From assembly GCF_028622115.1 (NCBI RefSeq), contig NZ_CP097263.1, forward strand, positions 3,162,001 to 3,226,000: a stretch of 64,000 bases of DNA, read 5' to 3'. A program made the translations under genes and the position numbers. Below the pieces are notes generated by a model that was given only the letters and a program-made list of their open reading frames with translations, was not told the DNA's origin and ran no database searches. This document shows, piece by piece, positions 16,905 through 49,880 of the stretch (within the stretch, counting starts at the first letter, position 1; the number at the start of each line of letters is the position of its first letter). The DNA is from Kutzneria chonburiensis (lineage in GTDB: Bacteria; Actinomycetota; Actinomycetes; Mycobacteriales; Pseudonocardiaceae).

Positions 16905-16981
16905 GTCTGGCACCTATCGGCTTCGCGGCTGTCGGCCCGGCGGCGGGAACAGCAGTGGTGGCAACGGGTTCACACCCGGGG

Positions 16982-24208
<7,227 letters not shown>

Positions 24209-24245
24209 AGAAAACAACCCAAGCAAGAGGGCGCCGGCCATAACA

Positions 24246-24262
24246 CCCCTACCACCCCCGAA
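24246..24262 (-). promoter_or_regulatory. tandem TAGGGG-like box upstream of PKS1
   Basis: The plus strand has CCCCTAC at 24246-24252 and CCCCGAA at 24256-24262, again 10 bp apart. Read toward PKS1 this is TTCGGGG, three bases, GTAGGGG. The distal half is degenerate. The gap to ATG 24208 is 37 bases and the RBS there is weak, so a very short leader or leaderless mRNA is possible. Confidence 0.5.
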
Positions 24263-24305
24263 TGCGCGAATTCGGCCGGGAAAAGAAATACGGCGGCACG
24301 GCACT

Positions 24306-24322
24306 TGAGGGGGACATAGGGG
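24306..24322 (+). promoter_or_regulatory. tandem TAGGGG-like box upstream of aminotransferase gene
   Basis: The plus strand reads TGAGGGG (24306-24312) and ATAGGGG (24316-24322) with 10-bp spacing. It lies 36 bases before ATG 24359, nearly the same gap as for the divergent PKS1 box. The two boxes sit back to back in the 150-bp divergent region, so both genes are probably controlled together. Confidence 0.55.
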
Positions 24323-24358
24323 TTGCCCGACCCCGAGGCCGACCGGCAGGTTTCCGAT

Positions 24359-25432
24359 ATGCGAGGACCACAGCCGCGTCCGGAACTGCATTCCCTAGCC
24401 GCGCACGCGGCCGGCCGAGCGGGCGGTGCGCCGACCGCGGAACTCAAACACCTGCTGGCGGCGAACGAGAATCCGTACGATCCGCTGCCCGGTGTCCTTG
24501 ACGCGGCCGTCGCCGCCGCCGGGCAGTTCAACCGCTACCCCGATATCGGCTGCGAACGACTGATCGACGCGCTGGCCCACCGTTTCGACCTGCCGCCCGC
24601 CCGATTCGCGGCCGGCGCCGGGTCGGTGAGCGTCATCCAGTCGCTCGTCCAGGCCATGACCGCGCCGGGGGACGAGGTGATCCACGCCTGGCGGTCGTTC
24701 GAGGCCTACCCCATCATCACGAAAGCCGTCTGTGGCGCGACCGCGGTCGGGGTCCCGCTGACCGACGACGGGCACCACGACCTCACCGCCATGGCCGACC
24801 GGATCACCGAACGGACCCGGCTGATCTTCATCTGCACCCCCAACAACCCCACCGGCACGACGGTGCGCCGTGACGAGCTGGCGGAGTTTCTCGGCCGTGT
24901 TCCGGAGAACGTGCTCGTCGTGCTGGACGAGGCCTACGCCGAATTCGTGCGGGACGAGGACACGCCGGACGGCATCACCCTGTGCCGCGAATACGCCAAT
25001 GTCGCCGTGGTGCGGACGTTCTCCAAGGCGTATGGCCTGGCCGGCTTGAGGATCGGGTATGCCGTCGCCCCGGAATCCGTCGCCGCGGCGCTGCGCATGA
25101 CGGCGCCCTACGGGGTCAGCCAGATCGGGCAGGAGGCGGCCATCGCTTCGCTGGCCGCCGAACGTGAGGTCATGCACCGGGTCGACGCGGTCATCACCGA
25201 GCGCCGCCGGATGGAGGACGTCCTGGCCGAACAGGGCTGGCCGGTCACCCGCTCCCAGGCGAACTTCGTCTGGCTCCCCATCGGCGACCGCGGCGGTGAC
25301 TTCGCCGCTGCCTGCGGTCGGGCCGGCATCGCGGTGCGGGTGCTCGGCACTGACGGAGTCCGGGTCACCGTCGGCTCTCCGGAAGCCAATGACCTGTTCC
25401 TGGCCACGGCGGCCGAAGCTCGACTGGGATGA
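24359..25432 (+). CDS. HisC-like PLP aminotransferase (fold type I)
   Basis: This 357-residue enzyme matches the histidinol-phosphate/aromatic aminotransferase family. It has NENPY near the N-terminus, a YPD segment, CTPNNPTG (cofactor and substrate contact), VLDEAYAEF, and the Schiff-base region [16 protein letters not shown] with the PLP Lys. ATG 24359 is preferred. TTG 24323 would add 12 residues but would start directly at the operator. The gene diverges from PKS1 and its stop codon directly abuts the end of the NmrA-like gene. Its position and shared operator suggest it acts for the polyketide rather than in histidine synthesis, perhaps adding an amine to an aldehyde or ketone. The amine acceptor is unknown. 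Confidence 0.85.
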
Positions 25433-37438: not shown

Positions 37439-38394
37439 CTACAGAACACTCAGCCGTTTGCCGTCCCACGCCACCGGCCTGGGATCGCTGATGTCGCCGA
37501 CGAAGCCGTCCTCGCCGCGGTTGTGGAACGCCAGCAGCACCCAGCGGCCGTCGGACCGGCGGCGGATCAGGCGTCCGCTGTAGCAGCGGTCGTCGGTGAC
37601 GGGCTCGGCCGCCGCGATGTCGAACGGCCCGAGCGGACCGCCGGCCGGGGCGGCCCAGACGCCGCCGGTCGTGCCGGTCGCGCGGCGGTCGGCCGAGGCA
37701 TGCTCGGCCAGGCAGGAGAACAGCAGGACCGGCCGGCCGTCGATCACCTCGACCTGGGTCACCTCCAGCTGCCCGAATCCCCGTGGCCCGGGGCCGTCAA
37801 CGGTGGCCGCGGTTCCCAGCGGCGCAGGTCGGCGGAGACCGCGTGGCCGATGACGCCGCGCTCGAACGGTTCGCCGGTGGTGGCACGGGCGGTGATGAGC
37901 ATGTGCCAGCCGTCGCCGTCCGGATCGGCGAACACCCACGGGTCGCGGAACGCCTCGTCGTGCCAGACGCCGGCGTCCAGCGTCTCGTACCACCGGGAAT
38001 CGGCGGCCAGCACCGGATTCTCCGGATTCCGTTGCCAGACAAGCAGATCCTGGGACGTCGCGTAACCGATCCGCTGGACGTTGCGGCCGTCGGGGGCGGC
38101 CGTCGCGCCGGTGTAGAACAGGAACCACGTGCCGTCCGGATGCCGTACCACCGAACCGGTCCACGTCGCCAGGTCGTCGAACGCCGGGGCGTCCGCGCGG
38201 ACCAGGGCATCCTCGACTCGGTTCCAGCTCACCAGATCGGCCGAGACGGCGTGGCCGACCGACGCGCGGTAGTGGCGGGCCTCGGGGTCGTGCAGGGCCT
38301 TTGAGGCGTAGAGGAAGAACAGGTGGTAGCGGTCGCCGTCGTCGGCGAACCAGAAGTCCCAGACCCAGGAGTCGGGCAGCGAGAACATCCTCAT
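37439..38394 (-). CDS. cytoplasmic GH32-like beta-fructosidase, frameshifted
   Basis: Two frames join to give about 318 residues with a five-bladed beta-fructosidase fold: SWVWDFWF (candidate nucleophile Asp), TWTGSVV, and FRDPWVF (the RDP motif of GH32/GH68). The first frame (from ATG 38394) ends in LTAPGHGD and then stops early. The second resumes as FGQLEVTQVEV and runs to TAG/TGA at 37439. One added T in GATT near 37776 restores GDFGQLEV. There is no signal peptide, so it should act on imported oligofructosides. Its ATG overlaps the permease stop. GH43/GH68-type activity is an alternative. Confidence 0.75.
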
Positions 38395-39281
38395 CCCTTC
38401 ACGCCGCTGGCGGCGACACTGCTGACGAACGCGCGCTGGAAGGCCAGGAACACCACGAGCACCGGCAGCGTGATCATCGAGGTGTAGGCCATGACCTCGC
38501 CCCAGGCGGTGTTGTCCTGGAAGAAGTACTGGAGGCCGACCATGACCGGCCGCAGGTTCTCGTCCTGCACGACCATGCTCGGCCACAGGTACTGGTTCCA
38601 GGCCGGCAGGAAGGTCAGGATGGCCACGGTGGCGAACGCCGGACCGGACAGCGGAACGGCGATCCGCCGGTAGATGGTGAGCCAGCCGGCGCCGTCGATC
38701 CGGGCCGCCTCGTCGATGGCGGTCGGGATGGTCGAGAAGTACTGGGCGAACAGGAAGATCGAGAAGCCGTTGGCGATGAACGGGATGATCTGCACCTGGT
38801 AGGAGTCCAGCCAGCCGAAGTCGTACTCGACCCGCCCGTGCTGCAACACCAGGGTCGGCAGCTGCGAGACCCAGTAGACCATCGGCACCGCGATGGTCTC
38901 GAACGGCACGATCAGCGTGGCGATGACGACGCTGAGCACCACGCCCCGGCCGGTCCAGCGCAGCCGGGAGATCGCGAACCCGGCCATCGAGTTGATCACC
39001 AGCCCGGCGCCGACGATCGCCACCGTGACGAGCACCGAGTTGAGCAGGAACCGCCCGACCGGGACCCGGTCGAACACCCCGGCGTAGTTGCGCAGGCTGA
39101 TGTCGCCCAGCGGCAGGAACGCCCGCCAGCCGCCGAGGTCGGACAGGATCTGCCCGTCCGGCTTCAGGCTGGAGACGATCATGAACACCAGGGGGAACAG
39201 GAAGAACACGGCCAGTCCGACCAGCACGAGATAGGTCCAGACCCGCCGGCGGCGGCGCAGCACCGGGTCAGGCACGGCCAT
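38391..39281 (-). CDS. CUT1 ABC sugar permease (MalG-like)
   Basis: This 296-residue protein has six predicted membrane helices and the cytoplasmic EAA loop AIDEAARIDGAGWLTIYRRI, which contacts the ATPase. Length and order fit the second permease of carbohydrate uptake-1 systems. It overlaps the first permease gene by 14 bases and the GH32-like gene by 4. No ATP-binding subunit is encoded nearby, as is usual in actinomycetes that share an MsiK-type ATPase. Confidence 0.92.
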   Translation of the reverse strand: MAVPDPVLRRRRRVWTYLVLVGLAVFFLFPLVFMIVSSLKPDGQILSDLGGWRAFLPLGDISLRNYAGVFDRVPVGRFLLNSVLVTVAIVGAGLVINSMAGFAISRLRWTGRGVVLSVVIATLIVPFETIAVPMVYWVSQLPTLVLQHGRVEYDFGWLDSYQVQIIPFIANGFSIFLFAQYFSTIPTAIDEAARIDGAGWLTIYRRIAVPLSGPAFATVAILTFLPAWNQYLWPSMVVQDENLRPVMVGLQYFFQDNTAWGEVMAYTSMITLPVLVVFLAFQRAFVSSVAASGVKG

Positions 39282-40230
39282 GGCTGGAGTCCTTGTCTCG
39301 GGTCAGGAAGCGCTGCACCAGCGCGATGACGAGCACCAGCACGAAGAACACCAGCGACAGCGCCGAGCCGTAGCCGATCTGCTGCTGGTGGTAGCCCATC
39401 CGGACGGCGTGGTAGACCAGCGTCGAGGTGGCGTCCACCGGGCCGCCCTGGGTCATCACGTCGATCTGCACGAACAGGCCCAGCGCGGCGATGGTGATGG
39501 TGATCAGCACGAAGACCCGGGTCGGGCGCAGGCACGGCCACGTCACGTCGCGGAACTGCCGCCACGGTCCGGCGCCGTCGATCCGCGCCGCCTCGTACAG
39601 CTCGCCGGGGATGGTCTGCAGGCCCGACAGCCAGATCAGCATGTGGAAGCCGACCGCCTGCCAGATCGACAGCACGATGATCGCGGCCAGCGCCGTGCTC
39701 GGGTTGTTCAGCCAGGCGGTGCCCTGCCAGGCGCCGAGGGTGATCGAGTTGATGAAGGAGTTGACCAGCCCGTCCGGCTGGTACATGAACTTCCACAGGA
39801 TGGAGACCACCACGATCGAGGTCACCACCGGGATGAAGAAGATGACCCGGAACGCGACCGCGCCGCGGATCTTCTGGTTCACCAGCAACGCCAGCGCCAG
39901 CCCGAACCCGGCCTGCACCGGCACCACGACCACCGCGAAGCAGAACGTGTTCAGCAGCGAGCGGACGAAGGTGGGGTCGGCGGTGAAGGCCCGGACGAAG
40001 TTGTCGAGGCCGGTGAAGGCGATCGGTTCTGGTGAGACCAGCCGGGCGTTGGTGAACGACAGCACGAAGCCGAGGATCACCGGGACGATCAGGAACGCGG
40101 CCAGCAGCAGCACGGCCGGCGCGACCATGGCCCAGCCGGCACGGCGCTCGGCGCGCAGGTCGACGCGGATCCGTTGGCGTGGAGAGGAAATCGCGGCCAC
40201 GCGGGTTTTCGACGGGGAGATCGCCGTCAT
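39268..40230 (-). CDS. CUT1 ABC sugar permease (MalF-like)
   Basis: This 320-residue permease has a 30-residue cytoplasmic N-tail, six helices and the EAA motif LYEAARIDGAGPWRQFRDVT. It is the first of the two permease subunits of the probable fructo-oligosaccharide importer. It follows the solute-binding protein gene after 57 bases and overlaps the next permease, so stoichiometric expression is expected. Confidence 0.92.
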   Translation of the reverse strand: MTAISPSKTRVAAISSPRQRIRVDLRAERRAGWAMVAPAVLLLAAFLIVPVILGFVLSFTNARLVSPEPIAFTGLDNFVRAFTADPTFVRSLLNTFCFAVVVVPVQAGFGLALALLVNQKIRGAVAFRVIFFIPVVTSIVVVSILWKFMYQPDGLVNSFINSITLGAWQGTAWLNNPSTALAAIIVLSIWQAVGFHMLIWLSGLQTIPGELYEAARIDGAGPWRQFRDVTWPCLRPTRVFVLITITIAALGLFVQIDVMTQGGPVDATSTLVYHAVRMGYHQQQIGYGSALSLVFFVLVLVIALVQRFLTRDKDSSHGRA

Positions 40231-40287
40231 GGGAGGTGCCTTCCCGCTCGGCCCGCCCGGCGTCGCCGCCGGGCGGGGAACGACGGT

Positions 40288-41568
40288 CTAGAAGCCGTAG
40301 TTGTTCTGCGACTTGATGTCGGTGTCGATCGCCTGCGCTGCGGTGTCCAATGTGGACTTCACGGCGGCGCCGTTCATGATGTCCTTGGCCGCCTTCTCGA
40401 AGGTCGAGGAGATCACCGGGTAACCGGGCGTGGCCGGCCGGGCCAGGGCGAACTTCCGCGACAGCACCGTGAACTGGTGCAGGGCGCCGGTGTCGCTGAA
40501 GTACTTCGACGCCGCCGCGGCGCTCGCCGTGCTCGGGATGACCACCTGGCTGTCGGCGAAGGCGGTGAGATACTTGTCCTGGAAGCTGAACTTCAGGTAC
40601 GCGCGGGCCCCGTCGGCGTTCGGGCAGCCGGCCGAGATGCCCCACTGCCAGGAACCGCCGCCGATCTTCGGGCCCTTGCCGAAGTCCACCGGCGGCAGGA
40701 TCAGCAGGTCGCCGCCGACCGCGGCCAGCGCGTCCTTGGCGTTCCACACGCCGGTGTAGCTCAGCGCGACCTTGTTGTCGATGAAGCGCTGGTTGCCGAC
40801 CGGGCCGGCGTTGTCCACCCACTTGTCCTTGAACGCCTGCTGGAACCAGGTGAAGAACCGCACGGCGTCCGGGCCGTTCAGCGCGCCGTCGGCGGACTTC
40901 ATGGTGCCGCGGTTGATCAGGTCGCCGCCGGCGCTCTGCAGCATCGGCGAGTAGGCGTACGACCACCACTCCCCCGTGTCGGCGGCCCCCAGGTCAAGTG
41001 GTGTGGCGTAGCCGTTGGCCTTCAGCGTCGTCACGGCCGCGTCGAACTCGTCGAGCGTCCAGGGCTTGTCCACGGTGGGGATCCGGATGTTGTTCTTGTC
41101 CAGCACCGATTTCCGGGCGAAGATCGACAACGCCGCGTCCCAGTAGCCGGCCGAGTAGACGGTGTTGCGGTAGCGGCCGACCGTGGTGGGCAGCAGGGAG
41201 TTGATCAGGCTGTCCGGCAGGCCGAGCGGCTGGAGGTAGCCGGCCCAGGCCCAGTTCGGCATCACCGGGCCGTCCATGTCCAGCAGGCAGGGCAGCTTGT
41301 GCGCGGCGGCGGCCGCGGTGATCGCGTCGTTGTAGGAGCCCTGCGGGAAGTTCTGCTGGACGATCTTGTACTGGTGCTGGGACGCGTTGAAGTCGGCGAT
41401 GATCTGCTTGTACACCGCCAGTTCGCCGGGATTGCCGGCCGAGTGCGTCCACATCGTGATCTCGCCGGGGGCGCCGGCCGAGTCCTGGCTCGCGCGGGCG
41501 CAGCCGCCGAGCGCGAGCGCCGCGGACAGGCCCGCCGCTACTATGACCGAGAGAGACTTGCGCTTCAC
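40288..41568 (-). CDS. sugar ABC transporter solute-binding lipoprotein (fructan operon)
   Basis: This 426-residue family-1 extracellular solute-binding protein has a lipoprotein signal, MKRKSLSVIVAAGL followed by the lipobox LALGGC, so it is anchored by its Cys to the outer face of the membrane. GTG 41568 is taken as the start because it gives a normal signal peptide; the RBS is weak. It follows the LacI gene after 95 bases and precedes two permeases and two GH32-type enzymes, which point to fructo-oligosaccharides as ligand (inference). Confidence 0.9.
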   Translation of the reverse strand: MKRKSLSVIVAAGLSAALALGGCARASQDSAGAPGEITMWTHSAGNPGELAVYKQIIADFNASQHQYKIVQQNFPQGSYNDAITAAAAAHKLPCLLDMDGPVMPNWAWAGYLQPLGLPDSLINSLLPTTVGRYRNTVYSAGYWDAALSIFARKSVLDKNNIRIPTVDKPWTLDEFDAAVTTLKANGYATPLDLGAADTGEWWSYAYSPMLQSAGGDLINRGTMKSADGALNGPDAVRFFTWFQQAFKDKWVDNAGPVGNQRFIDNKVALSYTGVWNAKDALAAVGGDLLILPPVDFGKGPKIGGGSWQWGISAGCPNADGARAYLKFSFQDKYLTAFADSQVVIPSTASAAAASKYFSDTGALHQFTVLSRKFALARPATPGYPVISSTFEKAAKDIMNGAAVKSTLDTAAQAIDTDIKSQNNYGF

Positions 41569-41663
41569 CGTGGGTTTCTCTTTCCCGGAGCGCGACCGGC
41601 CGTCGCCTCCGTGCCGGATGGCAGCGCCAACTGCCATGTGGAGTGCTGTGATCCGCCGCCGGC

Positions 41664-42698
41664 TCAGTCGCCAAACTGGGCCGGCGGCGGGCCGACCGAG
41701 GCCCGTCGCACGATCGGGCAAGGCATGAGATGCGGGGCCGCCGGGTCGGCCTCGCGCAGTCCGAGGGCGACCTCCATCGCCCAGCGGCCCATCTCGTAGT
41801 GCGGGAGTGCGACCGTGGTCAGCGGCGGGTCGAGCTCGGCCGCGACCAGCTGCTGGTCGTCGTAGCCGACGACGGACAGGTCATCGGGCACCGAAAGGCC
41901 GCGCTGGTGCGCGGCCGCGTAGGCGCCCATCGCCATGCGGTCGTTGAAGCAGAACATCGCCGTCGGCCGGCGGCCCGCCGGCAGGTCCAGCAGCCGCCGG
42001 GCCGCCGCCCGCCCGCCGCCGGCCACCGGTTCGGCCCTGGCGTGCAGGAAGGGATCCGGCTCGATCCCGGCCTCGGCCAGGACCTGGAGATACCCCTCGC
42101 GCCGCAGCCGCGAGGCGACGAGGTCGAACCGCTCCTCGGCGTCCAGGTAGGCGATCCGGCGGTGCCCGGCCGCCACCAGTTCGCGTACCGCCGCCATCCC
42201 GCCGGCCCGTTCGTCGGGCACGACCGCGGCCCGGTTCGCCGTGGCCGGCGCGCAGTCGAGCAGGACGGCGTCCTCGGGCAGATCGGCCGGCACCTCGACC
42301 ACGCGGTGCCACATGCACGCGTAGATCATGGCGTCGACCTGCTGTCCGCTCAGGGCTTGCAGCGCCTGCCGCTCCGCGCCGACGTCGCCCTCGGTGTCGA
42401 CCAGGATCACCAGCCGCCCGTGTTCGCGGGCCACGTCGTTGGCCCCGGCCAGCATCCGCCCGGCGAACGGCGTGGTCGCGATCGTGTCCGAGACCAGGCC
42501 GACCAGCCGGGTCTGCTGGGTGCGCAGACTGCGGGCCACCGAGTTCGGCTCGTAGCCGACCGCCTCGGCCGCCTCGCGCACCCGCTGCTGGGTCTGCGGT
42601 GAGATGCGCGCGGTGTTGACGCCACTGAGCACCATCGACACCGTCGCCGTCGACACCCCGGCGCGGGCCGCCACATCGGACATCCGGACTCGACCCAT
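41664..42698 (-). CDS. LacI-family repressor of the fructan operon
   Basis: This 344-residue regulator has the LacI HTH at the very N-terminus (MSDVAARAGVSTATVSMVLSG), the hinge helix region (SVARSLRTQQT) and a periplasmic-binding-protein-like effector domain (LVGLVSDTIATTPFAG to the C-terminus). ATG 42698 has AAGGGA 7 bases upstream; a GTG one codon earlier is possible. A perfect palindrome TTAATCGATTAA lies 22 bases upstream of the start, so it is likely autoregulated and represses the downstream transporter and hydrolase genes until a sugar binds. Confidence 0.92.
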   Translation of the reverse strand: MGRVRMSDVAARAGVSTATVSMVLSGVNTARISPQTQQRVREAAEAVGYEPNSVARSLRTQQTRLVGLVSDTIATTPFAGRMLAGANDVAREHGRLVILVDTEGDVGAERQALQALSGQQVDAMIYACMWHRVVEVPADLPEDAVLLDCAPATANRAAVVPDERAGGMAAVRELVAAGHRRIAYLDAEERFDLVASRLRREGYLQVLAEAGIEPDPFLHARAEPVAGGGRAAARRLLDLPAGRRPTAMFCFNDRMAMGAYAAAHQRGLSVPDDLSVVGYDDQQLVAAELDPPLTTVALPHYEMGRWAMEVALGLREADPAAPHLMPCPIVRRASVGPPPAQFGD

Positions 42699-42719
42699 CA
42701 CGGCGTCCCTTCCGGCTGT

Positions 42720-42731
42720 TTAATCGATTAA
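42720..42731. promoter_or_regulatory. LacI-type operator, fructan operon
   Basis: TTAATCGATTAA is a perfect 12-bp palindrome with a central CG, as in LacI-family operators, and lies directly upstream of the LacI gene. It is strikingly AT-rich against the GC-rich background. A second, less regular candidate, ATGGCA with TGCCAT eight bases apart (41618-41637), precedes the solute-binding protein gene. Confidence 0.65.
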
Positions 42732-42763
42732 CTACAGGTTAAGCGAGTATGCAGCGCGGTACT

Positions 42764-43324
42764 TCACCCGTCAAGGGCCGGCCGCATGCCGAAGGCGAGG
42801 AGCAGGGTGATGCCGGCCAACAGGAACAAATCGCCGATGCTGGCCACGGCGTGCAGGGGCGGGACCGGAATGATGTCGCCGAGCCAGGCCAGGTGCGTCG
42901 AATCGACAGCAGGCACGTTCTTCGGGCCACTGTCGAAGTCTCCGGGTCGCTGCCCGGCGAGGACGGCCGCGGCGCGGGAGTAGGGCATGCGGCCGTTGCC
43001 GGCGATCGCGATGCCGTTGAGCACCGCGCCGGCCAGCACGGTCAGCCCGGACACCTGGAGGGGGCGAGAGCGGCGGGGCAGGTTGAGCATGATCCACAGG
43101 CACATCAGCGCGAAGACCGGTACGAGCATCGGAAGATGCGCCTCGTCCTGAAGCAGGTGCCGCAGGCCCGCCAGGCGGTACTGGGCGAGCTGGATCGCGG
43201 CGGCGGTCCACGGCAGCCACCAAGCGCGCAGGCGCAGTGCGGTCAGATGACGCAGCCGGCCGCCGGCAAGGTAGCCGGCGGCCAGGCCGGTCAGTATCGG
43301 CAGACAGAAGACGAGCAAGGACAT
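42764..43324 (-). CDS. DUF5317-like membrane protein
   Basis: This 186-residue protein has about five hydrophobic segments and the motifs NGIAIAGNGRMPYS and LAWLGDIIPVP, with SIGD near the end, which I associate with the DUF5317 family of unknown function. Its ATG is one base after the stop of a 30-codon gene with a strong RBS, so the two form a mini-operon. A copy of the 21-bp GTACGGG element lies upstream of that pair and suggests control by the neighbouring HTH/NB-ARC/TPR regulator. Confidence 0.7.
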   Translation of the reverse strand: MSLLVFCLPILTGLAAGYLAGGRLRHLTALRLRAWWLPWTAAAIQLAQYRLAGLRHLLQDEAHLPMLVPVFALMCLWIMLNLPRRSRPLQVSGLTVLAGAVLNGIAIAGNGRMPYSRAAAVLAGQRPGDFDSGPKNVPAVDSTHLAWLGDIIPVPPLHAVASIGDLFLLAGITLLLAFGMRPALDG

Positions 43325-43417
43325 TCAGCCGCCGGTCACGTCCGGAGCACCGACGGTGTAGACGATCGTGGCCAGCGTGGCCACGGCGAACAGGGCCTGA
43401 TACAAGCGATATCTCAT
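43325..43417 (-). CDS. 30-residue single-pass membrane peptide
   Basis: A short gene with a near-perfect RBS (AAGGAGG, then TGTGCG, then ATG 43417) encodes MRYRLYQALFAVATLATIVY and ten further residues ending GAPDVTGG. The basic start and the hydrophobic run of residues 8-22 indicate a small membrane peptide. Its TGA is directly followed by the ATG of the DUF5317-like gene, so translation is coupled. Function is unknown. It could be a leader, a regulator of its partner or a membrane-inserted toxin-like peptide. Confidence 0.7.
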   Translation of the reverse strand: MRYRLYQALFAVATLATIVYTVGAPDVTGG

Positions 43418-43470
43418 CGCACACCTCCTTGATGGACCAGGCTGGAGGAGGACACGGGGTGAAGTCCCGA

Positions 43471-43491
43471 TTCCCGTACGAACCCGTACAC
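43471..43491 (-). promoter_or_regulatory. 21-bp GTACGGG element, copy facing the membrane-peptide operon
   Basis: Read on the minus strand the element is GTGTACGGGTTCGTACGGGA plus one A, with two GTACGGG heptamers 10 bp apart. It is the exact inverted copy of 45845-45865. It lies 53 bases before the ATG of the 30-residue peptide gene and 49 bases before the GTG of the divergent regulator, so it could serve both. Confidence 0.65.
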
Positions 43492-43499
43492 CGCGCACC

Positions 43500-43505
43500 T
43501 AGAAT
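43500..43505 (+). promoter_or_regulatory. possible -10 box of the HTH/NB-ARC/TPR gene
   Basis: TAGAAT fits the TANNNT consensus of actinomycete sigma-70-like promoters. It begins 10 bases after the proximal heptamer of the 21-bp element (43471-43491) and lies 36 bases before GTG 43541. The -35 position would overlap the element, as at activator-dependent promoters. Confidence 0.4.
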
Positions 43506-43540
43506 TCGCCGTCAGGGGAACGGTTTCAGCCAACGGGGGC

Positions 43541-45871
43541 GTGGTGGGCGAGCAGCCGATGCCGGATCCGGACGGGGCGGCGGATCTGGCCGGGTTCATC
43601 GATCTGCTCGGGCAGCTGCGGGCGTGGGCGGGGATGCCCTCGTACCGGTTGCTGGCCAAGCGGGTGGGGTCACAAATGCAAGGGGCGGTGCCGCTCTCGA
43701 CGGTGGTGGACGTGTTCAAGGCCGAGCGTCGCCGTCTTGATCTGGATCTGGTGGTCGCCGTGGTGCGGGCGCTCGGTGCGGACGAGCCGACGGTGCGGCG
43801 CTGGCGCACGGCGTGCGTCCGAGTGCACGGAGAGGCGAAAACCGGTGGCACGGCGGGGGTACTGGGTCAACTGCCCACCGACCTGGTCACGTTCACCGGC
43901 CGCCGGCAGGAACTCACGCGGCTGATCGAGGCGGCGACCCGGCCCCGTGACGACGAGGGCGCGAACACGGTGGTGATCTCGGCGATCGAAGGGATGGCCG
44001 GGGTCGGCAAGACCCAGCTCGCCATCCGCGCGGCCCACCAGCTGGTCCGCTCGGGCCACTTCCGGGATGTCCAGCTGCACGTGAACCTGCGCGGCTTCGA
44101 CGCAGAGCTGCCGGCCGCCGACCCGTCCGCGATCCTCGAGGCCTTCCTGCGCCAGCTTGGCGTTCCGGTCCGGCAGATCCCCGCCACCCGCGACGAGCGG
44201 GCGGCCATGTTCCGCGACCGGCTGCGCGACCGGCACGCCCTGATCCTGCTGGACAACGCCGCCGACGAGGACCAGGTCCGCGATCTCATCCCGGCCAGCC
44301 CCACCTGCCTGGTCCTCATCACCAGCCGCCGCAGCCTCACCGCGCTCGACAACGCCGCCCCGCATCCGCTCGACGTCTTCACCGAGTCCGAGTCGCTCGA
44401 CCTCCTCGCCCGGATCGCCGGCGCCGAGCGCGTGGCGGCCGAACCGGCCGCCGCGGCCGACATCGCCGAATACTGCGGCCACCTGCCGCTGGCCGTCTCA
44501 CTGGCCGCCGCGCGCCTGCGCTCCCGACCCGCCTGGACGTTGCGGCATCTCGCCGACAAGCTGCGCGACGGACGCCTGAACGCCATCCACTCCGGCGGTC
44601 GCGGCCTGCGCCCGGCCTTCCATCTCTCCTACGAGGAACTCGCCGAGCCACTGCGCCGGATCTTCCGGCTGCTCGGGCACCACCCCGGCCCCGACACCAC
44701 GCCGGCCCAGCTCGCCGCCCTGGCCGACATCACCACCGACGAGGCCGAGGATGCCCTGGAACAACTCCAGGACGAGCACCTCGTCACGCAGCCCACGATC
44801 GGCCGCTACGAACTCCACGACCTGCTTCGCCTGCTGGCCGTCGAGCTGGCCGCGGCCGAGCCGGAGCCGGATCCCGCCGCCCCGCTGACCCGGCTCGCCA
44901 CGTGGTGCGTGGCCACCGGATACGCCGCCGCCGTGGCCATCAACACCCCGAACCTCACCGGCCGTGCCCCCGAAACGGCGTCCTTCGCGGACTACGACGA
45001 GGCCCTGACCTGGTTCGACCGAGAGCGCAACACCCTCGCCGCGGTCCAGCGGGCCGCCGCGGAAGCCGGTCTGCACGATCACGTGTGGCAGCTCGCCGAA
45101 GCCCGGAAGCACTTCTTCGTCCTGCGCCGCCATCTCGACGAATTCCGGACGGCCCAACAGCTCGCCGTGGCCGCCGCGCGGGCGGCCGGCGACCGCAGGA
45201 CGCAGGCCGCGATGATCGGCGCGCTGGGCGGCGTGTACTGGATGACGGGACAGCTCGACGAATCGGAGGACTGCTGCCGGCAGGCTCGCCGTCTCCATCA
45301 GGAACTCGGCGACGTGCGCGGCGAGGCGGCGGTGCTGATTTCCCATGGCGTCGTGCACAATCAGCGGGGAAACCACGAGGGCAGCGTCGACCTGATCACG
45401 CAGGCCCTCGACCTGCTCGACGGTCCGGACACGCTCAAGCTGCGCGCGATGGCGCTGGTGAACCGTGCGGTGGTGGACAAATACGGCCCGGGCCGCCGTC
45501 CACGCGCCGTCAGCGAGCTGCGCGAAGCCCTGGCGATCTTCCGGCAGTGCGAGGACCGCCACAACGAAGCCTTCGCCCTGGGCAATATCGCCGACTTCCT
45601 CCTGATGGACGCCGATCTCGACACGGCACTGACCCTCTACGGCGAACAGCGGGAGCTCGGCCGGCAGCTCGGCGACGCCTACATCGAGGCGGAGGCGCTG
45701 CGCGGCACCGGCGACGTCCACGCCGCGACGGACCACACCGCCGACGCCCGCCAGGCCTGGTCCGAGGCCCTCGCCCTGTACGAGCAGATCGACCACCCCA
45801 AGGCCGCCGAGGCCCGACAACGCCTCAGCCGGCCCGATTCCGAGGTGTACGGGTTCGTACGGGAAAGGTGA
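43541..45871 (+). CDS. XRE-type HTH / NB-ARC / TPR regulator
   Basis: The protein has 776 residues. Residues about 15-95 form the actinobacterial XRE-like HTH region (GFIDLLGQLRAWAGMPSYRL). NB-ARC follows, with the P-loop GMAGVGKTQLAI near 153, ALILLDNA (Walker B-like) and LVLITSRRS, then a winged-helix part with LSYEEL and YELHDLLRLL. Residues about 500-770 are TPR pairs (DDTA-like helices such as AAVLISHGVVHNQRGNHEGS). GTG 43541 follows GGGGG; ATG 43559 is an alternative. Its last codons themselves form the second 21-bp element. A small secreted peptide gene lies 60 bases downstream. By family logic the TPR part would sense a ligand, NB-ARC would switch state with ATP, and the HTH would bind DNA, perhaps at the flanking elements. 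Confidence 0.88.
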   Translation: MVGEQPMPDPDGAADLAGFIDLLGQLRAWAGMPSYRLLAKRVGSQMQGAVPLSTVVDVFKAERRRLDLDLVVAVVRALGADEPTVRRWRTACVRVHGEAKTGGTAGVLGQLPTDLVTFTGRRQELTRLIEAATRPRDDEGANTVVISAIEGMAGVGKTQLAIRAAHQLVRSGHFRDVQLHVNLRGFDAELPAADPSAILEAFLRQLGVPVRQIPATRDERAAMFRDRLRDRHALILLDNAADEDQVRDLIPASPTCLVLITSRRSLTALDNAAPHPLDVFTESESLDLLARIAGAERVAAEPAAAADIAEYCGHLPLAVSLAAARLRSRPAWTLRHLADKLRDGRLNAIHSGGRGLRPAFHLSYEELAEPLRRIFRLLGHHPGPDTTPAQLAALADITTDEAEDALEQLQDEHLVTQPTIGRYELHDLLRLLAVELAAAEPEPDPAAPLTRLATWCVATGYAAAVAINTPNLTGRAPETASFADYDEALTWFDRERNTLAAVQRAAAEAGLHDHVWQLAEARKHFFVLRRHLDEFRTAQQLAVAAARAAGDRRTQAAMIGALGGVYWMTGQLDESEDCCRQARRLHQELGDVRGEAAVLISHGVVHNQRGNHEGSVDLITQALDLLDGPDTLKLRAMALVNRAVVDKYGPGRRPRAVSELREALAIFRQCEDRHNEAFALGNIADFLLMDADLDTALTLYGEQRELGRQLGDAYIEAEALRGTGDVHAATDHTADARQAWSEALALYEQIDHPKAAEARQRLSRPDSEVYGFVRER
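45845..45865 (+). promoter_or_regulatory. 21-bp GTACGGG element, copy facing the small secreted peptide gene
   Basis: GTGTACGGGTTCGTACGGGA plus one A lies inside the last codons of the regulator gene and 65 bases before ATG 45931. It is identical to the minus-strand reading of 43471-43491. A further single GTACGGG follows at 45884-45890. Both copies point toward a small-peptide gene at similar distance. Confidence 0.65.
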
Positions 45872-45930
45872 CCGCACGACACCGTACGGGGCACTGTGGA
45901 GTCTCGAACGACTCCTACCGAAGGAAACCG

Positions 45931-46088
45931 ATGAAACGCCTGGCTGCCGCCATTTTCGGCACGAGCGCGCTGCTCGTCGCCATCCTGCTCTCCCCGTCCA
46001 CGGGGCCAGCACGCCCGACGCCGCGCAGTCGGACAACGGCCCGAGCTACTCCACGAACGCGACCGCCACGGAGTACGGCCTCCTGTGA
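45931..46088 (+). CDS. small secreted peptide precursor (about 52 aa), frameshifted in a G run
   Basis: GAAGGAAACCG precedes ATG 45931. The first frame gives a signal peptide: MKRLAAAIFGTSALLVAILL then SPSTG. That frame then runs on through the terminator with no stop. From the GGGG run at 46002-46005 the GC-rich third-position pattern moves to the next frame, which reads ASTPDAAQSDNGPSYSTNAT then ATEYGLL and stops at TGA 46086-46088, four bases before a strong hairpin. One extra G restores a single 52-residue precursor. The mature part would be about 25 residues, Ser/Thr/Asn-rich. I do not recognise a family. Its place behind an HTH/NB-ARC/TPR regulator suggests a signal peptide or a secreted effector. 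Confidence 0.55.
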
Positions 46089-46091
46089 TCG

Positions 46092-46133
46092 ACGCTGTTC
46101 CGGTTGTCCGAACTCGGACAACCGGAACAGCGT
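46092..46133. terminator. strong bidirectional hairpin between convergent genes
   Basis: ACGCTGTTCCGGTTGTCCGA (46092-46111) is perfectly complementary to 46114-46133, giving a 20-bp stem (18 to 19 usable pairs) with a tiny loop. It lies 3 bases past the peptide stop on the plus strand and 4 bases past the glycosidase stop on the minus strand, so it can end both transcripts. Confidence 0.85.
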
Positions 46134-46137
46134 TGCC

Positions 46138-48792
46138 TCAGCGGCCGGTGGAGCGGGCGACCGTCGGGGCTCCGGCGACGAACTTGGCGAGGGTGACGGT
46201 GTCGAGGTTCGGGCCGTACGCCGTGGCGTTGCCGAGGAGCAGGGTGCCGGTCGCGGTGGTGAGGGTGAGCGGGATCGTCTTGTCCCAGTAGCTGTTCCAC
46301 GCGTAGTCGTTGCGGAACGCGGCCCGGGTGGCGGCGCCGCCGGACTCGGTGATGTCGAGGAATCGGCTGATCACCTGGGGGTTGTAGTTGATGGCCCCGG
46401 CCTTGTCGGCGTTCGCCGCGCCGAGCACCAGCTGGTAGTCGCCGGCGCCGAAGCCGGACGGGCGGGGGATGCCGAGGGTGTTGCCGGCCCCGTTGCCGAG
46501 GTAGCCGACGTCGTGGACCGTGCCGGAGGCGTCGGCGGAACCGTTCGATCCGGCGGCATCGGTCTGGACGCGGGCGGCGCCGGACATGGGCAGGGCCTCG
46601 GCCTCCGAACGGAAGACGTTGGCGGGGTTGGCATCCGCGGCCTTCTGGGCGGCGCCGCGCAGGGTGGTGATGCCGTCGAGGGTGGCGCCGGCGGGCGCGG
46701 TGACCTTGAGCTCGTTCACGCCCTGGGGCAGGAAGACGCGAACGGTGGCGTTCCACGGCCCCGCGTGGCTGACGGCCGGGAGCTGGACGGCGCGGCCGTT
46801 GACCGCCAGGGCCAAGGCGCTGGCCCCGGTGGTGCGGAACTGCGTAGTGACGTCGTAGTACCCGGTTTCGGCCGTGGTGGCGAAGAAGGTGGCGCTGCCG
46901 GAGCCGGACAGCGAGGCACGGCCGGCCTCGCAGGTGAGGCTGGCGCCGCCGGCGAGGCGGGCATCGACGGCGGGGTAGGTGGCCTGCTCGCCGTTCGTCA
47001 CGTCGTACAGGTCGAACCGGTCGAGGGTGATGTCCGCGCCCGGCAACACGGTGCTGCCGTCCTTGCTCGCACGGACGGACAGCGTGTGGGTGCCGGCGCT
47101 GAGGCTCACCGTCACATCCGCGGTCCCGCGGTATCCCCACCCCAGATCGGCGGAGTACTTGACGAGCTGGTTGTACGTGCCGTCGACGAAGAACGCGTGC
47201 TGACCGGGCTGCTGGTTGGATCCCGAGAGGATGCTCAGCCGGTAGGTTCCGGTGCGCGGCACGGTGACGGACCAGGACGCGGCGGAGTCGGCCTTGTTGA
47301 ACGAGCCGACGTCACGGCTGCCCGAGGCCATGAACGACCACTCCCGAGACGGGTCCTGGGCGTAGACCGTGGCGTCGGTGAGCGTCGCGTTCTCGGCTTC
47401 GGTGGTGTTCACCAGATCGGTTGCGACGGGCTGGAGGGCGGTGGTCGCGGGGGTGAGTTCGACCTGGTAGCCCGCATACCGGTCGCGGTTGGGAATGGTC
47501 ACCGTGACCTTCCCGGCCACGACGGCGGCGGTCGCCGACACGACGACGGGCGGCTGGAGCGAGGCGCCTTCGGCGCCGTTGAGCCGGTCCTGCCGAACCT
47601 GGACGTGCACCGAGGAGCCGAACACCTTGGGGTCGACGCCGCTGATGTTCACGGCGACGTCGTTGGAGCCGCCACCGACCAGCACGGTGGCCTTCTTCTG
47701 CGCGGTGTCGACCGCGCCGATGGCCTGGAGGGTGTCGGGCACGTTCAGCTGCGGCGGGGTGACCTTGACGGTCCGTGCGCCGGTGAGGTCGCCGTACCAC
47801 TTGAACATCCACCAGCCGCCGTTGGCGCCGTTGTTGCGGGACGAGTTGTCCGAGAGGTTGCCGGCGTAGTTCCAGAAGGCGGTCTGCGCGTCGACCTTCG
47901 CGTCCTCGAACATGGCCAGCCACTGCACGAGCTGCCCGGGCACGCCCATGTCGCGCAGCATCCCGTACTCGGTGATGTTCACGGGAATTTCCGGGATACC
48001 AAGGGTGGTCAGCAGTTGCCGGTACTGGGTGACGTGGCCGCGGAACGTCGCGAGGTTGTTGGTGCCGAGCTCGTGCCAGATGAAGACGTCCGGCAGCTGG
48101 TTGTGGGCCTTGGCGTAGCTCAGGAAATCGGTGCTGCGGTCGGCGTGCCACGACGAGTCGCCGGGGCCGCCGATCTTGGCGTGGCCGAGGCCGTGCGCGG
48201 CGTACACCGACTGGATGGTGTCGTAGGCCGCGCTCCAGTCGGCCAGGAACTGGTCCTTCTGCGTGGACCAGTTCGGGTACCAGTTGCCGCCGTCGGGCTC
48301 GTTGAACGGGATGAAGATGTAGTCCCGGGGATGCGCGGACTTCGTCGCGACCTTCTCCACGGCCGCCTTGAGGACGGGCAGGTAGTCCCACACGCCGTCA
48401 TGGTCGGCGTCACCGGGTCGGTGGCCGCTGTTGTAGGGCCAGTCCGGATACGCGTCCTGGACGTAGACGTACAGGTCCTTGCCGCTGCCGGCGAAGAAGG
48501 ACTTCTCGACGTTGAGGGCGTCCCCGCTGGGGTGCTGTAAGCCGTCCGGCGGCTTCTGGGACGTGTTGGTGACATGCGCGCCGTCGAGCACGGCCTGGCT
48601 CGGCACGCCGTCGTCACCAAGGCCGTAAAGCGTTCCGCTGGCACCGCCACGGAAGGTGCCGGTCGTCTGCGAGAGGTCGACGTTGAGGGTGTCGGCCGAA
48701 GGCCCGGCCAAAGCCGGGGCGACACTGCCCATGATGAGGGCCAAGGTCAAACCGAGGATTGCTCGGTTTCGGACGCGTGCGTGCACGGACAA
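46138..48792 (-). CDS. secreted clan-A glycoside hydrolase with CBM35/CBM6-like modules
   Basis: The protein has about 884 residues. The start is taken as TTG 48792 (AGG 7 bases upstream); GTG 48786 is possible. A signal peptide (RAILGLTLALIMGSVAPALA) is followed by a TIM-barrel-type domain with IFIPFNEPDGGNW (likely acid/base Glu) and VNITEYGM (likely nucleophile Glu), a clan GH-A pattern that recalls GH39 and GH5-like enzymes. The exact family is not certain. After a beta domain come two carbohydrate-binding modules (from TTEAENATLTD and from VFRSEAEALPM). It is last in the minus-strand operon after the LacI gene. The target is probably a plant- or fungus-type polysaccharide. Confidence 0.75.
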   Translation of the reverse strand: MSVHARVRNRAILGLTLALIMGSVAPALAGPSADTLNVDLSQTTGTFRGGASGTLYGLGDDGVPSQAVLDGAHVTNTSQKPPDGLQHPSGDALNVEKSFFAGSGKDLYVYVQDAYPDWPYNSGHRPGDADHDGVWDYLPVLKAAVEKVATKSAHPRDYIFIPFNEPDGGNWYPNWSTQKDQFLADWSAAYDTIQSVYAAHGLGHAKIGGPGDSSWHADRSTDFLSYAKAHNQLPDVFIWHELGTNNLATFRGHVTQYRQLLTTLGIPEIPVNITEYGMLRDMGVPGQLVQWLAMFEDAKVDAQTAFWNYAGNLSDNSSRNNGANGGWWMFKWYGDLTGARTVKVTPPQLNVPDTLQAIGAVDTAQKKATVLVGGGSNDVAVNISGVDPKVFGSSVHVQVRQDRLNGAEGASLQPPVVVSATAAVVAGKVTVTIPNRDRYAGYQVELTPATTALQPVATDLVNTTEAENATLTDATVYAQDPSREWSFMASGSRDVGSFNKADSAASWSVTVPRTGTYRLSILSGSNQQPGQHAFFVDGTYNQLVKYSADLGWGYRGTADVTVSLSAGTHTLSVRASKDGSTVLPGADITLDRFDLYDVTNGEQATYPAVDARLAGGASLTCEAGRASLSGSGSATFFATTAETGYYDVTTQFRTTGASALALAVNGRAVQLPAVSHAGPWNATVRVFLPQGVNELKVTAPAGATLDGITTLRGAAQKAADANPANVFRSEAEALPMSGAARVQTDAAGSNGSADASGTVHDVGYLGNGAGNTLGIPRPSGFGAGDYQLVLGAANADKAGAINYNPQVISRFLDITESGGAATRAAFRNDYAWNSYWDKTIPLTLTTATGTLLLGNATAYGPNLDTVTLAKFVAGAPTVARSTGR

Positions 48793-48820
48793 GGGGGTAC
48801 CTGCTTTCAACGAAAGGGAC

Positions 48821-48832
48821 GAAACGGTTATC
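48821..48832. promoter_or_regulatory. possible LacI-type operator before the CBM-bearing hydrolase
   Basis: GAAACGGTTATC overlaps the LacI stop codon and lies 28 bases before the hydrolase start. It resembles the inner part of the TGAAACCGCTATCA site at 55226. It is imperfect and may be chance. Confidence 0.3.
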
Positions 48833-49880
48833 GACGGCGCGGCGGGGCCGTGCTCTCCCTGATGGCGATCGGCGGTTCGACGGTCTCCAGCGCGAGCGGC
48901 GACTCGCCGTTGAGCAGGGCCAGCAGCTGGGCCGTGCCGTGCCGGCCGAGCTCGGCGAAGTCCTGGCGCGCGGTGGTGAGCGCGGGGATGAACATGGCGG
49001 CGAGCGGATGGTCGTCGAAGCCGACGACGCTGATGTCGGCCGGCACCCGCAGCCCGGTGTCGTGGATCCCGCGGATGACGCCCATCGCCGTTTCGTCGTT
49101 GCCGCAGAAGATCGCGGTGACGGCGGGATCCCGGGCCAGGCGCACGCCGATCTCGTACGCGGTGGTGATCTCCCAGGACACGTCCTCGATGGACGGGATC
49201 GGGCTGCCGTTGCGCTGGAGCGCGCTGCGCCACCCGGTGGTCCGGCCGTCCTCCTTGCCCGAGGGCGGGATCCGCACGTGGTGGACGGTGCGGTGGCCCA
49301 GACCCAGCAGGTGCTCGGTCAGGCCGGCCGCGGCCTCGGACTCGTCGAGCACGGCCTGCGGCACACCGGGCTCGGGGATGCCCGAGAGCGCCACCACCGG
49401 CACGGCCGGCTCCAGGGCCTTGAGCGCGGCGACGCCGGGCGGGTCGAACTTGAGCACGACCACGCCGGCGACCGACTGCCGCAGCACGGCATCGGCGGCC
49501 GCCCGGACGTCGTCGTCCCGCTCGCTCTCCACGACCACGATGATCACCACGAAGCCGGCCGCCCGAGCGGATTCCTCGACGCCCCGAATGGCTTCGGCGT
49601 AGCCGTAGCGGGAGGTGTTGGCGGCGACGATCGCGATGGTGTTGGAGCGCCGGGAGGCCAGCACCTGGGCCGCGGCACTGGGGCGGTACCCGAGTTCGGC
49701 GATCGCCCGCTCCACTCGACGGCGACGTTCCTCGCTGACCCGGGCCGCGCCGGTGAGCACCCTCGACACCGTCGGCACGGACACGCCCGCGGCCCGCGCG
49801 ACGTCGGCGATGGTCGCCGGCCGGTCGGGCGTCGGGAACGTCATGGACCCATTATGGGAGCCCGCTTCGAGCCGCTTCAT
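48828..49880 (-). CDS. LacI-family repressor of the glycan operon
   Basis: The protein has 350 residues from ATG 49880, which overlaps the permease stop as ATGA and has GGAG 7 bases upstream; ATG 49844 would give 338 residues. The LacI HTH ATIADVARAAGVSVPTVSRV is near the N-terminus, the hinge region is AAAQVLASRRSN, and the effector domain follows (TIAIVAANTSRYGYAEAI onward). It is cotranscribed with the transporter. The TGWWAGCGCTWWCA-type palindromes between the GH36 and GH29 genes are its likely targets. The effector is probably a galactose-, fucose- or mannose-containing sugar. Confidence 0.92.
   Translation of the reverse strand: MKRLEAGSHNGSMTFPTPDRPATIADVARAAGVSVPTVSRVLTGAARVSEERRRRVERAIAELGYRPSAAAQVLASRRSNTIAIVAANTSRYGYAEAIRGVEESARAAGFVVIIVVVESERDDDVRAAADAVLRQSVAGVVVLKFDPPGVAALKALEPAVPVVALSGIPEPGVPQAVLDESEAAAGLTEHLLGLGHRTVHHVRIPPSGKEDGRTTGWRSALQRNGSPIPSIEDVSWEITTAYEIGVRLARDPAVTAIFCGNDETAMGVIRGIHDTGLRVPADISVVGFDDHPLAAMFIPALTTARQDFAELGRHGTAQLLALLNGESPLALETVEPPIAIRESTAPPRRR

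What the first reader, a model, noticed from the sequence alone, without database searches (positions are those of the whole stretch)
43325..46133. Candidate peptide/TPR-receptor cassette with twin identical 21-bp elements
An XRE-HTH/NB-ARC/TPR regulator is bracketed by two exactly identical 21-bp elements in inverted orientation (43471-43491, 45845-45865). Each element, read outward, holds two GTACGGG heptamers 10 bp apart. Each points to a small-peptide gene at similar distance (53 and 65 bases): a 30-residue membrane peptide coupled to a DUF5317-like protein, and a 52-residue precursor with a signal peptide just behind the regulator. The second copy is embedded in the regulator's own last codons. 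TPR receptors paired with a downstream exported pre-peptide recall Firmicute Rap/NprR/PlcR systems, and the regulator followed by a small gene recalls afsR-afsS. The signalling role is inference.
Basis: partly seen in the sequence, partly recalled or inferred. Interest (0 to 1): 0.8.

Follow-up and report, generated by a model that had tools for sequence, protein, structure and literature searches.

The report
DUF5317-linked small peptide signalling cassette
A 30-residue membrane peptide in this actinomycete belongs to an unrecognised family of tiny peptides that sit beside one membrane protein (DUF5317) and signalling genes, which suggests an undescribed peptide-signalling system; the signalling role is not yet shown.

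Summary
The twin elements are real: 22 bp identical (43471-43492, 45844-45865), with a core that occurs exactly twice in the 10.4-Mb genome, both here. The second 'peptide' (45932-46088) is not encoded in any single frame, and a scan of 29 regulator relatives found none like it, so that half fails. The first peptide (43325-43417) is the discovery. A profile trained on peptides outside its group ranks it first among the window's small ORFs. Such peptides of about 24-35 residues (basic start, one membrane helix, '..GA', short tail) lie in 57 of 103 DUF5317 loci. Whole-genome search finds them in 25 of 40 DUF5317-bearing genomes and 1 of 40 without. Most of these loci also encode membrane sensors with an ECF S-component-like model and diverse outputs (histidine kinase, GGDEF-EAL, HD-GYP, SpoIIE). 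In the window, and in two genomes of another genus, the neighbour is instead an XRE/NB-ARC/TPR regulator. Best reading: DUF5317 handles a peptide signal that a STAND/TPR regulator, acting at the twin elements, reads or controls here. The association is shown; processing, sensing and binding are inferred. No paper naming DUF5317 or PF17248 was found in the library searched.

The parts
42764..43324 (-). DUF5317 (PF17248) membrane protein, 186 aa
   Evidence: Pfam 55.3 bits against cut-off 25; AlphaFold2 model pLDDT 92, pTM 0.84; 4 PDB fold matches at E<=10, best E 5.5, none at E<=0.001
43325..43417 (-). 30-residue membrane peptide of the DUF5317-linked family, just upstream of DUF5317
   Evidence: Held-out profile: best of the window's small ORFs, E 0.0016, next window ORF E 2.3; homologues beside DUF5317 in L038, L039, L040, L077, L079, L080. 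No Pfam or NCBIfam match at E<=1
43471..43492 (-). 22-bp element copy 1 (two GTACGGG, period 10) between the divergent genes
   Evidence: operator role inferred
43500..43505 (+). TAGAAT, a possible -10 of the regulator; copy 1 would overlap its -35 region
   Evidence: Sequence reading; inference only
43541..45871 (+). HTH-like/NB-ARC/TPR (STAND-type) regulator, 776 aa; start codon uncertain
   Evidence: NB-ARC 49.8 bits, TPR_12 58.5 bits; HTH_31 weak, E 0.002
45844..45865 (+). 22-bp element copy 2, inside the regulator's last codons
45884..45890 (+). third GTACGGG heptamer
45932..46088 (+). former 'second peptide': a signal-peptide-like start and a C-terminal half in different frames; not an intact gene as it stands
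   Evidence: searched as two pieces, which found no relative beyond weak hits (E 0.14 or worse) in the loci then held
46090..46135 (.). very stable hairpin (terminator-like) between converging genes
   Evidence: Fold energy -45.8 kcal/mol for 46080-46145, z -8.5

Best explanation
The cassette is the window's version of a widespread, undescribed DUF5317-peptide module. The divergent operon (peptide, then DUF5317) makes a 30-residue membrane-inserted pre-peptide and its dedicated membrane partner. DUF5317 inserts, cuts or exports the peptide; the short tail after the helix (..GA | tail) is the likely signal. In many lineages a neighbouring membrane sensor with an ECF S-component-like domain reads it and drives a histidine kinase, c-di-GMP enzyme or phosphatase. 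Here, and in two genomes of another genus, the neighbour is instead a cytoplasmic XRE/NB-ARC/TPR regulator, which would sense the peptide or its state. It would control itself, the peptide operon and the short unit behind it through the two 22-bp elements. Shown: the peptide family, its link to DUF5317, the neighbouring sensors, the twin elements. Inferred: maturation, signalling, receptor role, DNA binding.
For: Peptide-DUF5317 link: at 12 bits or more the seed profile finds 68 small ORFs in the DUF5317 loci, 0 in 36 control loci and 0 in reversed sequence. With the iterated profile at 10 bits or more, 57 of 103 loci have the peptide (68 ORFs; 0 in controls, 1 in reversed sequence). Whole genomes: 25 of 40 with DUF5317 against 1 of 40 without at E<=0.001, Fisher p 4e-9; 52 of 55 hits within 7 kb of a DUF5317 gene. 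Many of the 40 had supplied profile rows, so the held-out test matters: a profile from 60 peptides outside the window's group puts the group's seven DUF5317-adjacent peptides on top of 1412 small ORFs (an eighth, L139, is missed), and 0 of 2000 shuffles of the window peptide reach its score. In the window's family, E<=1e-4 hits are in 3 of 50 genomes, all with DUF5317. Signalling link: of 72 loci with 3 kb on both sides, 42 have peptide and sensor, 6 peptide only, 5 sensor only, 19 neither; the peptide lies directly upstream of the sensor gene in 32 of 57 peptide loci. Outputs of 26 distinct sensors: HD-GYP 9, GGDEF 8 (7 with EAL), histidine kinase 8, SpoIIE 1. The sensor domain model is most like ECF S-components (best E 0.008, none below 0.001). 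TPR link: XRE/NB-ARC/TPR in L038 and L040; BTAD STAND regulators beside DUF5317 in L089, L153, L154 and AAA_16-LuxR in L161. Elements: two places in 10.4 Mb, both here.
Against: The window's tail (PDVTGG) lacks the W and the K/R found in 58 of 68 tails each, and is one of 2 of 68 without any W, F, Y or H. The conserved part is the helix and GA, not a variable tail as in most pheromones (recalled), which also fits a non-secreted membrane subunit. 46 of 103 DUF5317 loci show no peptide, 16 of them held only as short stretches. The STAND-regulator loci L089, L153, L154 and L161 lack a recognisable peptide. In G076, Micromonospora (two loci) and Nonomuraea the neighbouring regulators are other kinds or none. 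NB-ARC/TPR regulators are numerous in these genomes (19 matches in the window's own), so their adjacency could be partly chance. The L038/L040 regulators (36% identity) are not the closest relatives of the window's; closer ones (L004-L008, 38-44%) have no DUF5317 or peptide 1 within 1.5 kb. L038 and L040 hold no close match to the double GTACGG element (regular expression; the script was run on L035-L046 only in part, one search covered L001-L034), so the operator is not shown to be shared. Proline after GA in the window's group would hinder ordinary signal peptidase (recalled). Sensor-like domains also occur in genomes without DUF5317 (G417 strongly, others weakly). L139 was missed by the held-out profile (E 5.5), and its 60 training peptides had been collected with a profile that included the window's group. 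No expression, binding or peptide data exist.
Confidence: 0.45

Rival explanations
1. The peptide is not secreted. It is a small membrane subunit that binds DUF5317 and, in other lineages, the neighbouring sensor, and tunes them inside the membrane, as small regulators such as MgrB do (recalled). The XRE/NB-ARC/TPR gene is just the local transcription regulator.
For: The helix and GA are the conserved part; the tails are only 4-9 residues; the peptide is directly upstream of the sensor in 32 of 57 loci; DUF5317 has invariant polar residues N81, N103, D150, S162, D165 in 58 of 58 sequences that could form a binding site.
Against: W and K/R enrichment in the tail and tandem copies with alternating tails (L124, L126, L133) look more like a recognised ligand.
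Confidence: 0.33
2. Peptide and DUF5317 are a membrane-active peptide and its immunity or control partner (toxin-antitoxin or bacteriocin-like), with an ordinary autoregulated HTH gene beside it.
For: Small hydrophobic cationic peptide next to a dedicated membrane protein; patchy distribution (4 of 390 family genomes); repeat expansion in G076 and DUF5317 copies that look broken in L040 and L079.
Against: Coupling to signalling outputs in other lineages. L040 and L079 keep the peptide although DUF5317 looks broken, the reverse of what immunity needs. No PADLOC search was made.
Confidence: 0.1
3. One reading: an RRNPP-like TPR receptor with an exported pre-peptide encoded just behind it.
For: TPR repeats, a signal-peptide-like start at 45932 behind a plausible ribosome site, and the second element in front of it.
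Against: No single reading frame; no such gene behind any of 29 regulator relatives scanned, 28 testable; the receptor is 776 aa with NB-ARC against 250-500 aa.
Confidence: 0.05

Closest known systems
PF17248 (DUF5317)
   Same: The 186-aa neighbour is a member above the curated cut-off
   Different: Pfam lists no function; no paper in the library names DUF5317 or PF17248, and the partner peptide has no Pfam or NCBIfam match above chance
AgrBD/AgrC and ComQX/ComP peptide signalling (recalled)
   Same: Tiny precursor, dedicated partner gene and multi-membrane-span sensor encoded together
   Different: Unrelated proteins: DUF5317 gives no AgrB match and has no invariant Cys or His; the sensors resemble ECF S-components and feed four kinds of output
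RRNPP (Rap, NprR, PlcR) systems, PMC10075063 (passages read)
   Same: TPR-bearing regulator beside a small peptide gene
   Different: Regulator 776 aa with NB-ARC, peptide divergent and coupled to DUF5317
AfsR and other STAND regulators
   Same: NB-ARC and TPR architecture; best NCBIfam matches are HaaT and AfsR
   Different: No BTAD domain and far below the model cut-offs (342 of 1125; 335 of 1430)

Membership tests
DUF5317-linked small-peptide family (defined here) | Scores above unrelated small ORFs with a profile not trained on its own group | tested here: met
   E 0.0016, next window ORF E 2.3; 0 of 2000 shuffles reach the score
DUF5317-linked small-peptide family (defined here) | Adjacent to a PF17248 gene | tested here: met
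   Peptide stop at 43325, DUF5317 start at 43324
DUF5317-linked small-peptide family (defined here) | Aromatic/basic tail after GA (common, not universal) | tested here: not met
   Tail PDVTGG; 66 of 68 tails have W, F, Y or H and 58 have K or R
DUF5317-linked small-peptide family (defined here) | Neighbouring MASE9-like / S-component-like sensor (common, not universal) | tested here: not met
   None in window 38001-48000; NB-ARC/TPR regulator instead
PF17248 (DUF5317) | Score above curated cut-off | tested here: met
   55.3 against 25 bits
RRNPP quorum sensing | Receptor of 250-500 aa | tested here: not met
   776 aa; criterion from PMC10075063
RRNPP quorum sensing | Receptor carries TPRs | tested here: met
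   TPR_12 58.5 bits
RRNPP quorum sensing | Adjacent 10-100 aa propeptide exported by SEC | tested here: inconclusive
   The downstream candidate has no single frame; the divergent 30-aa peptide is adjacent but SignalP was not available
AfsR (SARP) regulator | BTAD domain and AfsR model score | tested here: not met
   No BTAD; 334.8 against 1430 bits
Agr system | AgrB-type peptidase | tested here: not met
   Only PF17248 matched at E<=0.1
Peptide signalling system in function | Released peptide changes receptor output | not testable with these tools
   Needs experiment

The most novel reading that the evidence does not exclude
An unrecognised peptide-signalling system spread over many families of the window's phylum: membrane pre-peptides of about 24-35 residues are matured by DUF5317, and the released 4-9-residue tails are read by sensors with an ECF S-component-like pocket that drive histidine kinases, c-di-GMP enzymes or phosphatases. 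In the window's family it has been rewired to intracellular STAND/TPR receptors that act through paired direct-repeat operators.
Probability: 0.35. Interest if true: 0.92.

Novelty: new variant of a known kind. Interest (0 to 1): 0.74.

Why it matters
Peptide signalling is well known in Firmicutes but poorly documented in Actinomycetota (recalled). A small-peptide family that predicts the presence of DUF5317 and of sensors with four kinds of output gives a first testable role to an uncharacterised membrane family (PF17248). It also offers short synthetic peptides to try on c-di-GMP and kinase pathways, and it would show the same peptide module read either by a membrane sensor or by an NLR-like (STAND/TPR) regulator.

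Tried and rejected
Second peptide behind the regulator: rejected as an intact gene. Regulator homologues as a route to the cassette: the best relatives (L004-L008, 38-44% identity) have no DUF5317 or peptide 1 match within 1.5-kb flanks and no downstream peptide in the scan. The element as a family-wide motif: rejected. A DNA pattern for T-x-x-Y-T-x-G-A-P over 374 class genomes gave only the window and one hit inside a 384-aa ORF that looks, by eye, like an acyltransferase. A ribosome-site hairpin in front of the peptide: folds no better than shuffles (z 0.83). DUF5317 as a known fold: no PDB match at E<=0.001. Sensor domain as diagnostic of DUF5317 genomes: rejected, hits occur in genomes without it. 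The exact peptide motif of the window's group in distant DUF5317 loci: absent from L047-L076; only the looser family motif is there. Literature: ten searches. DUF5317, PF17248, MASE9 with HD-GYP, and TM0504 gave no paper; MASE9 alone gave one unrelated paper (listing only); the broader searches were seen as listings and only PMC10075063 was used (passages). The library holds only openly licensed papers, so print elsewhere is not excluded. DUF5317 outside the window's phylum (Thermotoga maritima and Thermus composti ring in the controls) was not examined.
Full report
1. What is there. The regulator (43541-45871 +, 776 aa) has NB-ARC and TPR domains and a weak HTH_31 match at its N-terminus. The identical inverted elements are 22 bp long (43471-43492 and 45844-45865). 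GTACGGG-N3-GTACGGG occurs exactly twice in the 10.41-Mb genome, both times here. The genus sample (7 genomes, own included) has one further place, in G002; the TTC form is in 1 of 390 family genomes, this one. Two occurrences 2.4 kb apart, flanking one gene and identical over 22 bp, are not chance.

2. The second peptide fails. From ATG 45932 the frame stays open through the strong hairpin at 46090-46135 (z -8.5 for 46080-46145) into an opposite gene; the residues that end at 46088 are in another frame, without a start codon in this stretch. Whether this is decay, recoding or a sequencing fault cannot be told here. In a scan of 29 regulator relatives none had a short signal-peptide ORF within 350 bp downstream; L032 runs into its locus end, so 28 were testable, and the scan asked for a ribosome site and a strong hydrophobic stretch.

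3. The first peptide holds. DUF5317 is rare in the window's family (4 of 390 genomes by protein search). Of these 8 loci, 7 carry next to DUF5317 a peptide of the form LAT[LI][LV]YT[VI]GAP plus 4-5 residues; the miss is the MAG contig, L078. The peptide lies before DUF5317 in the window and in Micromonospora, behind it in the others.

4. The family is much wider. A DUF5317 search of 396 genomes of the window's phylum (by its named relatives, Actinomycetota) hit 108. I examined 103 loci: 16 short stretches (30 less 14 covered by longer ones), 79 longer regions, the other 7 loci above and 10 kb of the window; part of the places listed was not fetched. With the iterated profile at 10 bits or more, 57 of 103 carry at least one such small ORF, 68 ORFs in all, with 0 in the control loci and 1 in reversed sequence; two of the 68 score below 12 bits (L105, L141). 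They fall in 15 of the 28 families represented among the loci of the phylum sample. With the seed profile at 12 bits or more: 68 in these loci, 0 in 36 control loci (237 kb, from the regulator and pattern searches, mostly the window's own family or order; five are longer versions of others), 0 in reversed sequence; at 8 bits, 70, 1 and 7. Whole-genome search in 80 genomes that I picked (40 with DUF5317, 40 without): 25 of 40 against 1 of 40 have a hit at E<=0.001, and 52 of 55 hits lie within 7 kb of a DUF5317 gene; the exceptions are G475 (no DUF5317 found, 62% complete), G454:C136 and G472:C4. Since many profile rows came from these genomes I made a held-out test: trained on 60 peptides outside the window's group, the profile puts the group's seven DUF5317-adjacent peptides (two of them identical) on top of 1412 small ORFs, the window peptide at E 0.0016 and the next ORF at 2.3; an eighth, L139, is missed (E 5.5). 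None of 2000 shuffles of the window peptide reaches its score (16.7 against at most 12.1 bits). The 60 had been collected with a profile that included the window's group, so the independence is good but not complete. In 50 genomes of the window's family, three have a hit at E<=1e-4 (G000, G159, G218, all in short frames, all beside DUF5317); G076, the fourth with DUF5317, scores E 0.002 in a 150-aa frame lengthened by a repeat; 8 further genomes have hits at E 0.001-0.1, in frames of 99-807 aa. No Pfam or NCBIfam model covers the peptide: best stray E 0.04 and 0.11.

5. What sits beside it. 66 of 103 loci also encode a protein that matches a profile built from neighbouring membrane sensors (0 of the 36 control loci). 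Pfam MASE9 is above its cut-off in 11 of 26 such proteins scanned, below it in 4 and absent in 11. Of 72 loci with at least 3 kb on both sides, 42 have both peptide and sensor, 6 the peptide only, 5 the sensor only and 19 neither; in 32 of 57 peptide loci the peptide is directly upstream of the sensor gene on the same strand. Of the 26 distinct sensors, 9 have HD-GYP-type, 8 GGDEF (7 with EAL, one cut), 8 histidine-kinase and 1 SpoIIE outputs; three of them (L063, L092, L097) are in loci without a detected peptide, and L055 and L104 are the same gene. The sensor domain model (pLDDT 90.9) matches ECF-transporter S-components best (RibU, FolT, ThiT and the biotin component among ranks 1-25; best E 0.008, none at or below 0.001; query TM about 0.36-0.52), that is, membrane proteins that hold a small ligand. 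The sensor domain is not exclusive to DUF5317 genomes. In G218 and G159 the divergent neighbour is an XRE/NB-ARC/TPR regulator like the window's (36% identity over the shared part), though it is not its closest relative and such genes are numerous. STAND regulators of other types adjoin DUF5317 in L089, L153, L154 (BTAD) and L161 (AAA_16-LuxR), without a recognisable peptide.

6. DUF5317 itself. The model is confident (pLDDT 92, pTM 0.84), helical with strands around residues 150-162, and without a PDB match at E<=0.001. G22, N81, G99, N103, D150, S162, G164 and D165 are invariant in 58 of 58 sequences. No Cys or His is invariant (one column has His in the majority, but not in the window), so an AgrB-like thiol mechanism is unlikely; a processing role is a guess.

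7. How it probably works. The tails after '..GA' are 4-9 residues, 58 of 68 with W and 58 with K or R. I read them as signals made by DUF5317 and read by the S-component-like sensor, and in the window's family by the TPR regulator. The window's own tail (PDVTGG) is atypical and the helix is the better conserved part, so a membrane-subunit role is the main rival. Copy 1 lies between the divergent genes, 53 bp before the peptide's ATG, next to a possible -10 (TAGAAT 43500-43505) of the regulator; copy 2 lies 66 bp before the broken downstream gene. Autoregulation through these sites is the simplest inference.

8. Confidence. Peptide family membership and the DUF5317 link: about 0.95. Link to signalling genes: about 0.85 for the family at large, 0.6 that the window's regulator and peptide belong together. 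Peptide signalling as mechanism: about 0.45.

Noticed in passing
L039 6036-6461 (G076): The peptide gene beside a DUF5317 gene with an internal gap carries a long Phe-Ala repeat (a hexanucleotide repeat) in front of LATLLYTVGAPGDSH, possibly a variable or decaying copy.
   Followed up: no
L040 3600-4060 and L079 2000-2700: DUF5317 looks broken or truncated while the peptide beside it stays open.
   Followed up: no
L124, L126, L133: Four peptide genes in tandem before DUF5317, alternating between GAGWKP-type and GARWKP-type tails; L127 has one such pair.
   Followed up: partly
model of L095 1470-2174; sensors of L099, L116, L118, L128, L158 and others: The MASE9-like sensor domain has an ECF S-component-like predicted fold.
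   Followed up: partly
L038 6906-7424 (G218), L040 4058-4534 (G159): A secreted-looking Cys-rich protein lies between the regulator and DUF5317; the L038 copy has no Pfam match at E<=0.01.
   Followed up: no
window 45898-45915: Short hairpin GGAGTC-TCGAAC-GACTCC between the third heptamer and the broken downstream gene.
   Followed up: no
window 7263-24391: Two very large opposite-strand genes, by eye polyketide synthases, hold exact direct repeats within and between them at offsets of about 5.0 and 5.4 kb; no domain search was made.
   Followed up: no
window 38391-42701 and 46138-49233: The cassette sits between what looks like a sugar-transport operon with a LacI regulator (LacI; transport genes by eye) and an opposite-strand protein with a CBM35 domain.
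   Followed up: no
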